A DNA stretch of 64,000 nucleotides from Thiospirochaeta perfilievii. GTDB taxonomy: Bacteria > Spirochaetota > Spirochaetia > DSM-2461. The DNA is taken from the NCBI RefSeq assembly GCF_008329945.1, contig NZ_CP035807.1, positions 3,534,001-3,598,000 of the forward strand, in the 5' to 3' direction. The notes below the pieces were generated by a model, which was given only the letters and a program-made list of their open reading frames with translations, was not told where the DNA came from and did not search any database. A program made the position numbers and the translations under genes. Shown here piece by piece: positions 53,025 through 61,768 of this stretch. Within the stretch, counting starts at the first letter, position 1; each line of letters opens with the position of its first letter.

Positions 53025-53030
53025 AGATAA
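53025..53030. other. left half of attC site D, split by the IS110 element
   Basis: AGATAA, preceded by GC. Joined to CGTCC at 54426 it restores CAGATAACGTCC, identical to site B at 61649-61660 and matching sites A and C closely. This marks the insertion point of the IS110 element. Confidence 0.7.
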
Positions 53031-53093
53031 ATTATGGGAAAGGACTTGTTTTGGCATCCATATAACGATGCTATGATAGTAAGTGTAATAGGT

Positions 53094-53206
53094 TGCGACT
53101 GGTGTTATAATTAAGTCAGTACTTCTTAAAAGAAGAACGACCGATGGCTGTTGCGGGACTGGGAACTTATGTATCCCGTTATAACGATTAGCAGTCATCA
53201 GTCGCA
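53094..53206 (+). ncRNA. candidate bridge RNA of the IS110 element
   Basis: TGCGACTGGTG (53094-53104) pairs with CATCAGTCGCA (53196-53206) over 11 bp with one G-U, closing a domain. Inside are CTTCT/AGAAG (53122-53135) and CGGGA/TCCCG (53154-53178) with a 15-base loop, plus an alternative GATGGCTG/CAGTCATC pairing. IS110-group elements express such a bridge RNA from the left end, upstream of the transposase, to specify target and donor. The segment after the second stem contains ATAACG and CGTTAT, words present in the attC target. Exact ends are not known. Confidence 0.6.
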
Positions 53207-53305
53207 TTAACATTTTGAGGATGAGAAAATTTATCATACCCCGTATAGACGCATGATTATTATACTCCTCTTCTTTTAGGAAAGAAAGTAATTAGGAGGA
53301 ATGGT

Positions 53306-54412
53306 ATGGAATTTATGGGAATTGACCTTCATACAGACTGCTTTAATCACTGTACTCTAGATGAAGGGACAAAAAAGAAAGTTGGAACTTATTCGATTGA
53401 TAAAGAATCTTTGGAAAAATTTTACAAAATATTAACACCTGAAACCTATGTAATTGTTGAATCAACAACAAACTCATTCAAATTTACAGAGCTAATCCAG
53501 GACAAAGTTAAAGATGTTAATATTTCTAATACTTATGCTATGAAACTAATTAGCTTTACAAATAAAAAAACAGATAAAGTTGATGCTGAAAAATTAGCCA
53601 GGGTATTAAAGATGCAAATTTTAAGTGGAGAAGAGCAGATAAAAAGAGTGGAATTGCCACCTCCAATTATCCAAGAACTAAGAGCTTTATTTTCAACGTA
53701 TAAATTTCTAGGAAAGCAAAGAACTCAACTAAAAAATAGAATTCATTCTTTATTAAAACAGAACCTTTACCCTTTTAATAAAGTGATGATATTTAATAAT
53801 AAAATTAGAGATAAAATCTTAAATATATCTGAAGCAAGAGGATTGAAGTTTCAACTGAAGATTCTATTTGATGAGCTGGATCATTTAGAGGAAACTATTA
53901 AGTTACTTGTAACAGAAATTGAAGTTATGGGTTCTTCTTATATGAAAGAAATAGAGATATTAACTTCAATGCAGGGGATAAGTGTTTTTACTGCTATAGC
54001 TATTATTTCAGATATAATTGATGTTAAGAGATTTCCAAATTCTAAGAAATTTGCCTCATATTTAAGATCAGCACCAAAAGTTGAAAGTTCAAATAATAAA
54101 ACATTAATTAAGAGCACAAATAAACAGGGAAGAAAATTAACAATTTCTCTTCTGTATCAATCATTGAACCATTTCATAAACTCAAACAGATCCATTGAGC
54201 ATTGGTATGATAAATTAAGCGAGTATAAAAAAGTTGGTAAAGTGAGAATGGGAACTTGCAGGAGATTTATTACTGTCATTTATCAGTTACTTAAAAAAGA
54301 AGAGTATTATAGGTTCATGGACATTAAAAACCATGACCGGAAAATGCATGCTTATATGGTTTTACTAGAAAAAAATAAGGTAAATATTAGCAAATGGAAG
54401 GAGGTTTCTTGA
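53306..54412 (+). CDS. IS110-family transposase
   Basis: 368 residues. The N-terminal DEDD (RuvC-like) domain starts FMGIDLHTDCF (catalytic Asp) with VIVESTTNS and the KTDKVDAEKLA motif. The C-terminal Tnp20 domain has LTSMQGISVFTAIAIISDI and FPNSKKFASYLRSAPKVESS with the reactive-serine region. These recombinases use a structured bridge RNA to choose target and donor sites. It is full length and preceded by AGGAGGA, so likely active or recently active. Confidence 0.92.
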   Translation: MEFMGIDLHTDCFNHCTLDEGTKKKVGTYSIDKESLEKFYKILTPETYVIVESTTNSFKFTELIQDKVKDVNISNTYAMKLISFTNKKTDKVDAEKLARVLKMQILSGEEQIKRVELPPPIIQELRALFSTYKFLGKQRTQLKNRIHSLLKQNLYPFNKVMIFNNKIRDKILNISEARGLKFQLKILFDELDHLEETIKLLVTEIEVMGSSYMKEIEILTSMQGISVFTAIAIISDIIDVKRFPNSKKFASYLRSAPKVESSNNKTLIKSTNKQGRKLTISLLYQSLNHFINSNRSIEHWYDKLSEYKKVGKVRMGTCRRFITVIYQLLKKEEYYRFMDIKNHDRKMHAYMVLLEKNKVNISKWKEVS

Positions 54413-54425
54413 CTTTCATCATAGA

Positions 54426-54609
54426 CGTCCTGTTGAGGTGACTGCTCGTTCCTGTAGCGAAGCGAAAGGATTGGCGTGCTTCTTGCTCAATTATTACCCA
54501 TTAAAACTAAAATTTAGGATAAAAAGTACTGATTTCTAGTTTGAACTTTTAGTATGGGTTCATGCGAGAAGCATGACAAAGACAGTTCACTTCCAACAGT
54601 TTGTTATCT
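54426..54609 (-). other. attC site D (right part; R box split by IS110)
   Basis: Left arm CGTCCTGTTGAGGTGACTG pairs with the right arm CAGTTCACTTCCAACAG, leaving unpaired bases only on the right arm. The outer box GTTATCT (54603-54609) pairs with AGATAA at 53025. The tip is long: GCTTCTTGC pairs with GCGAGAAGC, and ACCCAT with ATGGGT further in. It directly follows the 3' end of the 95-residue gene at 54627, as an attC should. Confidence 0.75.
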
Positions 54610-55847: not shown

Positions 55848-55968
55848 AGATAACGTCCTTTTAACCTGCCGGATTGTGCCCGAAGGGATTGGCGGGCTAT
55901 TTGCTTTAGAGCGAAGCGAGCAAATAGCATGACAAAAATTCGGACTGGTTCAAAAGCTTGTTCAAGTA
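55848..55968 (-). other. attC site C
   Basis: AGATAACGTCC (55848-) and the right-hand GTTCAAG (55960-55966) form the outer boxes. CTTTTAACC pairs with GGTTCAAAAG, leaving one extra C on the right arm. The tip is CTATTTGC paired with GCAAATAG. It is closely similar to site B. It would belong to the HEPN cassette, now separated from it by the IS91-like element. Confidence 0.8.
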
Positions 55969-56114
55969 AGCCTTGCAGGCAGCTCTCAACATAAAACTAC
56001 ATATGTATAAAATAAATTAACTCCATTCAAATCTCCAAGTATTAAAATTTCCTTATCACAAAAAAAAGGTTAGTTGGTATATCAACCTTCTTACCTAAAT
56101 CCAAGGAGATAAGA

Positions 56115-57001
56115 ATGGAAAAAAATAACAAATGGTATAAGCAGTTTACTGACAAACTAGAGTTAACAGGTTTACGTCCAAGAACGGTAGATGTCTACTC
56201 TAGAGCTGTGAAACAGCTTCAGGATCATTATGATAGAAACCCTGAAAAAATAACAGAACTTGAAGTTCAAGAATACCTATTATACAGAAAAAACACTTCA
56301 AAATGGGCTCCTGCAACTCTAAATACAGCTCTTTGTGGTATTAGGTATTACTATCAAATGATGTTAAATGTTAATTGGGAGCTATTTAGGATTGCGAAGT
56401 TTGCTGCTGAAAATAAGCTACCCACAGTTCTAACAAAAGAAGAAGTTGACAGGATTCTAAGGTGTGCTAGACCCTTTAATAATTATGTCTACTTAGTTTT
56501 AGTTTATAGTTGCGGTCTTCGTTTGAGTGAAGCTCTAAATCTTGAAGTTTCTGATATTGATCGTGGAAGAATGATAATTCATATCCATAGAGGAAAGGGT
56601 GCAAAAGATAGACTTGTTCCTCTTCCACATTCAACACTAAAACTTTTAGAAAGGTATTGGAAAACACATAGGCATCCTAGGTTTATATTTCCTAGAACCC
56701 AAACTAATAAAAGGGGTGCACCTGTAAATGATTTAGCTGATGATACAGTTAATAAAGGATGTGCTCAAAATGCCATGAGAAATGCTGTTAAAAAAGCCAA
56801 TATCAATAAAAAGGAGTTTCAGTCCATACTCTGCGACATTGTTACGCTACACACCTTTTAGATTCTGGAGTAAATCTAAGGTACATTCAAATTTATCTAG
56901 GTCACTCAACTATTCTTTCAACACTGGTGTATCTTCATCTAACAGCTGCAGGAAACAGTGATGCCTATGGAATTATTGATAACTTAATGGATAGGTTCTG
57001 A
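56115..57001 (+). pseudogene. tyrosine recombinase (IS91-associated), frameshifted
   Basis: The first frame runs to a stop at 56859-56861 (248 residues) and holds the SAM-like N-domain and catalytic Arg in CGLRLSEAL. From about 56814 the adjacent frame continues with [15 protein letters not shown] (HxxR), YLGHST (His) and LVYLHLT (nucleophile Tyr), ending at 57001. One missing A in the AAAAAGG tract at about 56808-56814 explains the break. A -1 slip on AAAAAG during translation is also possible. It lacks the extra helix block of IntI integron integrases. Confidence 0.8.
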
Positions 57002-57002
57002 T

Positions 57003-58106
57003 ATGGGAGCTACGATAAAAGAGATTTTTACACTTTATGCTTGGGAATACCTTATGATAAATGAGGGTAAGGTTCCAACTAACCATAAGAAAGTTATAGA
57101 TGCCATAATCAATTGTAGAACTGATGTTTATGGTATTACTTTTTACAAATGTGAAGGCTGTGGAGAAATTCATACCAGTTTTAGATCCTGTGGAAATAGA
57201 CACTGTCCTACCTGTCAGGATCATAAAACAAAACTATGGACCGCAAAGCAACTTTCTAAAGAACTCTCTACAAATTATTTCATGATAACCTTCACTGTTC
57301 CTGAAGAAATAAGAGATTTTTTCCTTCAGAATCAGAAAGAGGCTTACTCTGCACTTTTTAAAGCATCATCTGATTCAATAAAGGAATCAACACAGAAAAG
57401 TAGAACAATGAGTGGAGCTACTACAGGATTTTTTGGTGTACTTCATACTTGGGGGAGACAGATCCAATATCACCCTCATATCCATTACGTTGTCCCAGGT
57501 GGTGCTTTGAATATAAAAAAACAGAGTTGGATAAGTTCATCAAAGGACTTTTTTCTACCTATATTTCAGTTATCAAAGTTATGTAAGGATAGATTTAAAA
57601 CTCTTATGAAGAATAAAGGATTACTTCATCAAATACCTCATGTAGTGTGGGTGTGGGAACGTGGTTGGAATGTTAATATCCAATCTGTTGGATCTGGAAG
57701 GAACACCATAAAATACCTATCAAGATATGTTTTTAAAGTAGCTATTTCTGATTACAGGATTCTTAAAGTCCAAAATAGAAGAGTCTATTTTAAGTTTAGA
57801 AGTAAAAAAACTGGGCAAGTTGTTACTACTTCTTTGGAAGTCTTAGATTTTATTAAAAGGTATCTACTTCATGTATTACCTTCAGGTTTCATGAAAATTC
57901 GATATTTTGGTTTTATGCATACATCATTTAATATGGAGTATAAGGACATTAGATTAATTATCGATGGCTTAGTTGCAGTACTTAATAAACCCGTAAAACC
58001 CATTATTCAGAAGGTTTTTATATCCTGTTCAGCATGTGGTAAAGAGATGAAATTTATGTTTTCTATACTTCCAAATAATATAAGAATTAGGGGGTCATCT
58101 GGATGA
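57003..58106 (+). CDS. IS91-family transposase (HUH endonuclease)
   Basis: 367 residues. The N-terminal zinc finger has CEGCGEIHTSFRSCGNRHCPTC. The HUH motif is HPHIHYVVPGG (about 160), and the catalytic Tyr region is IKYLSRYVFKVAISDYR. IS91 elements transpose by rolling-circle replication. The C-terminal end has a second CSACGK zinc-like motif; a copy of the last 33 codons is at 51505. The start is two bases after the recombinase stop. Confidence 0.92.
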   Translation: MGATIKEIFTLYAWEYLMINEGKVPTNHKKVIDAIINCRTDVYGITFYKCEGCGEIHTSFRSCGNRHCPTCQDHKTKLWTAKQLSKELSTNYFMITFTVPEEIRDFFLQNQKEAYSALFKASSDSIKESTQKSRTMSGATTGFFGVLHTWGRQIQYHPHIHYVVPGGALNIKKQSWISSSKDFFLPIFQLSKLCKDRFKTLMKNKGLLHQIPHVVWVWERGWNVNIQSVGSGRNTIKYLSRYVFKVAISDYRILKVQNRRVYFKFRSKKTGQVVTTSLEVLDFIKRYLLHVLPSGFMKIRYFGFMHTSFNMEYKDIRLIIDGLVAVLNKPVKPIIQKVFISCSACGKEMKFMFSILPNNIRIRGSSG

Positions 58107-58315
58107 AAATATATAAAAATTACATCTCCAAAAATAGGAACTATCCATGTTTCACAAGTGAGGTATATTTTAATGTTTTTACGGAGTTAAATAATTGGGG
58201 AAATAACAAAAAAGATGGATTTTCTGATGTGAAATCGTTCTCTCTTGGGTTCTTAAAGTTGAGTATAAAAATAATCTCGAGTATTTTATGTTATAAAATC
58301 CTCTTTAGAATGTAG
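58103..58315 (+). CDS. possible small protein of the IS91-like element
   Basis: 70 codons starting in the transposase stop (ATGA). It is basic and aromatic, without known motifs. The same frame is preserved intact in the fragment at 51600-51812, but with 462 of 463 identical bases that says nothing about selection. It may be chance. The region to 58470 probably holds the element's terminal recognition sequence. Confidence 0.3.
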   Translation: MKIYKNYISKNRNYPCFTSEVYFNVFTELNNWGNNKKDGFSDVKSFSLGFLKLSIKIISSILCYKILFRM

Positions 58316-58512
58316 CGATTATTTATCAATACCCTATATGGAATACTCTTTCGTTGGCTTACAGGAACATTGGATTGAAATCGACGATAAAGACCATAGA
58401 AGAGTCTCTTTTAACTGAAGATCACCTGATGTTTGGCCTTTATAGTCGAATCAATCCTTAGGGTTATATGATTTCCTTTGTAATATAGCTAGTATTTGTA
58501 GGAAATAATTTT

Positions 58513-60401: not shown

Positions 60402-60516
60402 ATATAACGTCGTTTTAACCTGACGTTGTGTCCCGACGGGTTGGCGCATTCTCTGCATTTTTCTTGCAGAGAATGTGACAAAACAAAGTTCTGGTTCAAA
60501 ACTTTGTTATCTGAGC
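60402..60516 (-). other. attC site A
   Basis: ATAAC (60404) and GTTAT (60506) are the outer boxes. GTTTTAACC (60412) pairs with GGTTCAAAAC (60493), one extra C on the right arm. The tip CATTCTCTGC pairs with GCAGAGAATG. It lies 35 bases beyond the 3' end of the YoeB-like toxin gene, whose cassette it closes. Confidence 0.8.
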
Positions 60517-61082: not shown

Positions 61083-61214
61083 TTAATAGTCTACCATTCT
61101 TTTGAGTTGGTTTAAAGATCAAAAATGTTGAAAATATTAAATAAATCAAGATAAGACAATTTTTATGGATAAAGTAGATGTAAATTATCATTGATACAAT
61201 TTTATTATGAAGAA

Positions 61215-61460
61215 CACTATTTCTTAGGAGAACCGTAGGTTAAAATTCCTCATTGAAACTATTTTATTTTCCAAGACACTATTGCTTAGGAAAACCGTAG
61301 GTTAAAATCCCTTATAGAAACTATTTTATTTTAAAAGACACTATTTCTTAGGAGAACCGTAGGTTAAATTCCTCGCTGGAACTATTTTATTTTCCAAGGC
61401 ACTATTAATTAGGAAAACCGTAGGTTAAATTCTTCATAGAAACCGTTTAAATTTTAAAGA
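61215..61460. repeat. four-unit tandem repeat of about 62 bp, each with a hairpin
   Basis: Units start at 61215, 61277, 61339 and 61400. Each has CACTATT, TTAGGA(G/A)AACCGTAGGTTAAA and GAAACTATTTTATTTT or close variants. AACC-GTA-GGTT forms a hairpin, extended by AGGA/TCCT in the first and third units. The last unit is more diverged. The stretch between the antitoxin and attC site B (61083-61647) holds this array and otherwise AT-rich DNA without a gene. Confidence 0.85.
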
Positions 61461-61647: not shown

Positions 61648-61768
61648 CAGATAACGTCCATTTAACCTGCCGAATTGTGCCCGAAGGGATTGGCGTACTA
61701 TTTGCATTAGAGCGCAGCGGGCAAATAGTATGACAAAAATACGGACTGGTTCAAATGTTTGTTAAACT
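61648..61768 (-). other. attC site B
   Basis: CAGATAACGTCC (61649-) and GTTAAAC (61761-61767) are the outer boxes. CATTTAACC pairs with GGTTCAAATG, one extra C on the right arm. The tip CTATTTGC pairs with GCAAATAG. Read on the minus strand, the R'' box GTTTAAC fits the general RYYYAAC. The methyltransferase stop codon lies within the site. Confidence 0.8.

What the first reader, a model, noticed from the sequence alone, without database searches (positions are those of the whole stretch)
53025..54430. IS110 element inserted precisely within an attC R box; flanks rebuild the box
Joining AGATAA (ending 53030) to CGTCC (starting 54426) yields CAGATAACGTCC, the same as attC site B. The insertion is within about one base of where integron integrase would cut. 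Some IS1111-group elements are known to target attC sites, but this one has the long 5' non-coding region of the IS110 group, so it may be a separate case of attC targeting.
Basis: partly seen in the sequence, partly recalled or inferred. Interest (0 to 1): 0.72.

Follow-up and report, generated by a model that had tools for sequence, protein, structure and literature searches.

The report
RNA-guided jumping gene hitting integron sites
A small mobile element in a spirochaete carries its own guide RNA that appears to steer it into the sites where integrons swap gene cassettes, and different copies in the same genome carry different guides, each fitting the site in which that copy sits.

Summary
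The window holds an intact IS110-superfamily element (DEDD transposase, 368 aa) lodged in the R' box of an integron attC site. The finding's left end is wrong by 35 bp: three other genomic copies and a fixed 17-bp junction-promoter spacing put the ends at 53066 and 54425, so AGATAA at 53025-53030 is a coincidence. The true flanks rebuild CATATAA^CGTCC, split exactly at the expected IntI crossover. A second full copy 2.5 Mb away also sits exactly at an attC; a third sits at a probable attC remnant; a truncated copy has the same kind of left flank. The 5' non-coding region encodes a target loop with two guides. In 22 related elements these covary with each copy's own flanks (0 of 100,000 permutations as good). 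So attC targeting is most likely RNA-guided, as in ISKpn4/ISPst6. It is not simply "IS110 group": guide order, subterminal inverted repeats and transposase phylogeny point to the IS1111 side; only the upstream non-coding region is IS110-like. Relatives at 48-58% identity carry other guides and target other sites, suggesting attC targeting arose here by guide change. New variant of a known kind. Transposition itself is not experimentally shown.

The parts
53066..54425 (+). IS element, 1360 bp (core CG at 53066-53067, second core CG at 54426-54427; equally 53068-54427)
   Evidence: End points shared by genomic copies; junction promoter spacing constant at 17 bp in 17 of 17 elements
53059..53065 (+). 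Left target flank CATATAA, outer part of the attC R' box
   Evidence: Flank comparison and empty-site join
54426..54609 (-). Rest of the interrupted attC: CGTCC (R' core side) to R'' GTTATCT at 54603-54609; cassette genes run on the - strand
   Evidence: attC covariance model, 3588425-3588604 in the genome, E 3.7e-9; 54419-54609, 65.2 bits; fold of joined site
53306..54412 (+). Transposase (DEDD, 368 aa)
   Evidence: Pfam DEDD_Tnp_IS110 and Transposase_20; NCBIfam NF033542, 165 bits, cut-off 140
53086..53268 (+). Predicted bridge/seek RNA region in the 5' non-coding region (limits approximate)
   Evidence: Fold z-score -2.09; conserved hairpin over 16 elements
53153..53159 (+). 5' target guide GCGGGAC, complementary to the right flank GTCCTGT (5 Watson-Crick and 2 G-U pairs over these 7 nt)
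53180..53186 (+). 3' target guide TATAACG, identical to the left flank TATAA plus the CG core
53245..53251 (+). Putative donor guide ATAGACG, identical to the right end of the element plus core
   Evidence: Same segment conserved over relatives; coordinates
54409..54414 (+). -35 TTGACT at the right end, half of the circle-junction promoter
53072..53077 (+). -10 TATGAT at the left end, other half of the circle-junction promoter
53071..53077 (+). Left subterminal inverted repeat CTATGAT
   Evidence: Sequence; longer form 12/13 in relative L033
54418..54424 (-). Right subterminal inverted repeat (ATCATAG on +)
   Evidence: Sequence; longer form 12/13 in relative L033
55848..55964 (-). Neighbouring attC of the array (its R'' end broken by an IS91-family element)
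60402..60512 (-). Neighbouring attC with R' end ATATAACGTC, as rebuilt at the IS
61649..61767 (-).

Best explanation
An IS110/IS1111-superfamily element that moves as a circle and inserts by RNA-guided recombination. When its ends join they make a promoter (TTGACT-17 bp-TATGAT) that can drive a non-coding RNA and the transposase. Two guides in the RNA's target loop pair with the two strands of the attC R' end (TATAA-CG-TCCTG), and recombination at the CG core puts the element at the integron-integrase crossover. Inferred consequence: the interrupted R' box reads GTCTATG instead of GTTATAT, so that attC should not recombine until the element leaves. Different copies carry different guides suited to different attC variants. 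Shown by sequence: ends, target, guides, covariation, junction promoter. Inferred: RNA production, circle, transposition, attC inactivation.
For: Two full copies exactly at strong attC sites among 32 in the genome. Guide/flank covariation in 22 elements: 98/110 against 43 expected and 75.5/96 against 34 expected, 0 of 100,000 permutations as good. Own copies: left guides TATAA or TTTAA match their own left flank 5/5 in all four; L003's right guide pairs 8/8 with its flank. Guides lie on opposite sides of the internal loop of a conserved hairpin. Junction promoter with 17-bp spacer in 17 of 17 elements. Joined L001 and L002 sites fold as attC.
Against: The window copy's right guide is imperfect (5 Watson-Crick and 2 G-U of 8) and L002's is 6/8. 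The L003 site is only a weak attC match (7.6 bits) and its join does not fold as attC. L004 lacks its right side. No close uninterrupted copy of this attC was found in relatives. The right donor guide was not resolved. No expression or circle data.
Confidence: 0.9

Rival explanations
1. The reader's boundaries are right (left end at 53031, flank AGATAA) and the element is a plain IS110-group member that targets attC.
For: AGATAA plus CGTCC does spell CAGATAACGTCC, as at 61649; the non-coding region is upstream of the transposase.
Against: No other copy shares 53031-53065; the junction promoter would have a 52-bp spacer instead of the 17 bp seen in 17 of 17 elements; the guide TATAACG matches the flank ending at 53067. 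Guide order, inverted repeats and phylogeny are not IS110-like.
Confidence: 0.02
2. The transposase recognises the folded single-stranded attC structure, and the guide matches are secondary.
For: attC sites fold; other attC invaders such as class C-attC group II introns are known (PMC9229058).
Against: Relatives with the same guide layout sit at other sequences that match their own guides; L003 sits at a site that does not fold as attC but pairs 8/8 with its right guide.
Confidence: 0.05
3. The copies share flanks because a segment with its attC was duplicated, not because of repeated targeted insertion.
For: The L001 and L002 right flanks are 93% identical over 182 bp.
Against: Left flanks are unrelated, the transposases are only 90% identical, and guides and left target bases differ between the two copies; L003 has a different right flank.
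Confidence: 0.05

Closest known systems
IS1111-attC elements (ISKpn4, ISPst6, ISPa25)
   Same: Target one end of attC sites; two-guide RNA with the top-strand match 5' of the bottom-strand match (PMC11187229).
   Different: Their non-coding region is downstream of the transposase; here it is upstream.
IS4321/IS5075 (IS1111 type)
   Same: Subterminal inverted repeats; guide order and 27-nt spacing the same.
   Different: Downstream non-coding region, other target, only 29.6 bits transposase similarity.
IS621 / ISEc21 (IS110 type, bridge RNA)
   Same: Upstream non-coding region with an RNA whose target loop pairs with both target strands (PMC11208160, PMC11187229).
   Different: Opposite guide order according to the papers; no long subterminal repeats; transposases on the other side of the tree split (94/95).
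ISMtsp17 (IS1111-family exception)
   Same: IS1111 relative reported with an upstream non-coding region (PMC11187229).
   Different: Sequence and target not compared here; reported as a single exception, whereas here a whole spirochaete clade has this layout.

Membership tests
IS110/IS1111 superfamily | DEDD transposase with C-terminal Transposase_20 domain | tested here: met
   Pfam, both domains over cut-off; NF033542 165 bits over cut-off 140
IS110/IS1111 superfamily | Guide RNA with segments complementary to both target strands | tested here: met
   Covariation in 22 elements
IS110/IS1111 superfamily | Promoter formed when the ends join in a circle | tested here: met
   TTGAC[TA]-17-TATGA[TA] in 17 of 17; activity not tested
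IS110 group | Longer non-coding region upstream of tnp | tested here: met
   240 bp upstream, about 13 bp downstream
IS110 group | Bottom-strand match 5' of top-strand match in the RNA | tested here: not met
   Order reversed: top-strand complement at 53153, bottom-strand match at 53180
IS110 group | Transposase clusters with IS621/ISEc21 | tested here: not met
   Tree split 94/95; few references
IS1111 group | Subterminal inverted repeats of 7-17 bp | tested here: met
   CTATGAT/ATCATAG 7 bp perfect in own copies; 12/13 in L033
IS1111 group | Longer non-coding region downstream of tnp | tested here: not met
   Upstream in this clade; downstream in IS4321
IS1111 group | Top-strand match 5' of bottom-strand match | tested here: met
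   Same order and 27-nt spacing as IS4321
IS1111 group | Transposase of 330-350 aa with GL-P----S(t)G motif, clustering with IS1111 members | tested here: inconclusive
   368 aa and RSAP----SN do not fit; tree places it on the IS4321/ISKpn2 side but deep
IS1111-attC elements | Insertion at one end of attC sites | tested here: met
IS1111-attC elements | Transposase related to ISKpn4/ISPst6/ISPa25 | not tested
   Their sequences were not obtained
Either group | RNA that co-purifies with the transposase and is needed for movement | not testable with these tools
   Needs RNA sequencing and transposition assays

The most novel reading that the evidence does not exclude
A deep spirochaete lineage of RNA-guided elements, with an IS1111-type guide RNA placed at the other end of the element, has evolved attC targeting on its own by rewriting its guides, and its copies are being re-guided to follow different attC variants within one genome.
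Probability: 0.5. Interest if true: 0.65.

Novelty: new variant of a known kind. Interest (0 to 1): 0.5.

Why it matters
It extends RNA-guided attC invasion from the described IS1111 elements to a spirochaete lineage whose architecture mixes the traits used to separate IS110 from IS1111. Within one genome it offers natural guide variants matched to different attC sequences, a ready test of how such elements change target. It also bears on integron stability: the insertion point is the integrase crossover, so the element should lock a cassette until it leaves.

Tried and rejected
Relatives with TAACG flanks (L028, L029, L030/G202, L036, G237a) as further attC cases: not claimed. G237 and G202 have no IntI over cut-off and no attC by the model, and I saw no matching R'' in the five right flanks. 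A close uninterrupted copy of the target attC in 26 family genomes: only a 72% match in G005 with no TAACG R' end at its left edge. Single-protein scans of the genome and viral collections found no relatives; an alignment query did. Rfam: no bridge-RNA family hit. The published guide order of ISEc21 could not be recovered with my simple scan, so the IS110 order rests on the papers. A strict 13-mer scan did not list the own copies' subterminal repeats because of a 1-base shift.

Full report
Setting. The window is positions 3,534,001-3,598,000 of a 3.67-Mb contig of a 3.70-Mb genome. One genome in the same class (G202) carries the same locus sequence as a record named Treponema (L030), so the host is most likely a spirochaete (inference). 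An integron integrase (TIGR02249, 382 bits, cut-off 265) lies at 3,612,702-3,613,646, beside an attC array that reaches into this window. Cassette genes run on the - strand, so in + coordinates the R' box is at the left end of each attC, and the IntI crossover (G^TT, from established knowledge of integrons) reads ATAA^CG.

Observation. The transposase at 53306-54412 matches DEDD_Tnp_IS110 and Transposase_20. The genome holds three full copies and one left-end fragment. Their common sequence starts at or within a few bases of the CG in TAACG^ATGCTATGATAG, and the full copies end ...CATCATAGA^CG. In the window this is 53066 to 54425. The rebuilt site CATATAA^CGTCC is an attC R' end, as at 60402 (ATATAACGTC).

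attC context. A covariance model from eight attC sites of the array finds 32 strong sites in the genome: the main array, a second array at 1.66-1.68 Mb, a pair at 1.081-1.084 Mb and a solo site at 1.889 Mb. The window copy ends at the attC 3,588,425-3,588,604. Copy L002, 2.5 Mb away, ends at the attC 1,083,902-1,084,081. In both, the outermost model positions are missing because the R' box is split. The joined flanks of both fold with paired R and L boxes. Copy L003 sits at TATAA^CGTCGATTTGAATTGCG..., which resembles the R'-L' half of the local attC sites, but the model scores it only 7.6 bits and the join does not fold as an attC; I read it as a degenerate remnant. The fragment L004 has the left flank ATTTAACG.

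Mechanism. The 5' non-coding region folds into a hairpin whose internal loop carries two segments: the 5' one complementary to the right flank, the 3' one identical to the left flank. Over 22 related elements, found in this genome, in genome-search hits and in genome contigs, the left guide matches its own flank at 98 of 110 positions against 43 expected, and the right guide scores 75.5 of 96 against 34; none of 100,000 permutations does as well, also after removing near-duplicates. The guides were picked by their position in the conserved hairpin, partly by hand, after the pattern had been seen by eye. Within this genome the guides follow the flanks: TATAA in L001 and L003, TTTAA in L002 and L004, and L003's AAATCGAC pairs 8/8 with GTCGATTT. 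The window copy's right guide fits less well (5 Watson-Crick and 2 G-U of 8), but only one other position in the 64-kb window scores as well with both guides. Joining the ends creates TTGACT-17-TATGAT or a near variant in 17 of 17 elements, the circle-junction promoter expected of this superfamily.

Which group. The upstream non-coding region is the IS110 trait. The literature gives IS110 seekRNAs the bottom-strand match first and IS1111 seekRNAs the top-strand match first (PMC11187229), and IS1111 subterminal inverted repeats of 7-17 bp (PMC11208160). Here the order is top first, with the same 27-nt spacing found for IS4321. The repeats reach 12/13 in a relative (L033) and are 7 bp perfect in the own copies (read). 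A tree with IS621, ISCro4, ISEc21, IS4321 and ISKpn2 puts the clade on the IS4321/ISKpn2 side (94/95), on a deep branch and with few references. The transposase (368 aa...RSAPKVESSN) lacks the G--P----SG motif. It is therefore not filed in either group. It works like an IS1111-attC element with the RNA gene at the other end. ISMtsp17 is a published exception with an upstream region, so the layout alone is not unprecedented.

Origin of attC targeting. Relatives at 48-58% identity carry guides for other sequences and sit at them, which suggests attC targeting arose in this lineage by guide change. Relatedness to ISKpn4, ISPst6 and ISPa25 was not tested, so independence from them is likely but unproven. 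Several relatives sit at TAACG motifs, but I found no proof that these are attC sites.

Novelty and limits. The papers held describe attC targeting only for IS1111-type elements among IS. One Shewanella integron survey found no IS interrupting attC sites (PMC9229058). Most subscription papers, including the original IS1111-attC papers, were not available, so an unseen precedent cannot be excluded. Everything here is sequence evidence; RNA, circle, transposition and attC inactivation remain inferred.

In passing, an IS91-family element with a tyrosine recombinase gene sits at the other end (R'') of attC sites: both full copies in the genome join TTTGTT| to their left end and |TTATAT to their right end. 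It is unrelated to the present element but may be a second attC-associated mobile element in the same integron.

Noticed in passing
window 55963-58463; genome C1:1664523-1667025, 1660069-1661050, 3585505-3585967: IS91-family element (tyrosine recombinase gene, broken by a stop in this copy, plus Y2 transposase). Both full copies sit inside the R'' box of an attC at the same position (TTTGTT|CAAGTAAG ... CCTTAGGG|TTATAT); two further right ends were found, and the one read in sequence (window 51960) also abuts TTATAT. A Shewanella study reports an IS91-like element adjacent to an attC (PMC9229058).
   Followed up: partly
genome C1:3602958-3609572 (L017 4958-11572): Run of nearly identical attC sites spaced about 399 bp apart, as if one short cassette had been copied many times in the array.
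   Followed up: no
genome C1:1664410-1677419: Second cluster of at least ten attC sites about 2 Mb from the integrase gene, with no second full integron integrase in the genome.
   Followed up: no
L030, L035, L036: Related elements whose left and right core dinucleotides differ (CG/TG, CG/CA, CA/TG), which could show which core comes from the donor and which from the target.
   Followed up: no
window 61181-61432: Four tandem copies of a 62-bp repeat near a small gene pair in the array.
   Followed up: no
L028, L029, L030, L036, L021: Related elements in other spirochaetes inserted at CGCATAACG or CGCCTAACG; they resemble attC R boxes but no attC was demonstrated.
   Followed up: partly
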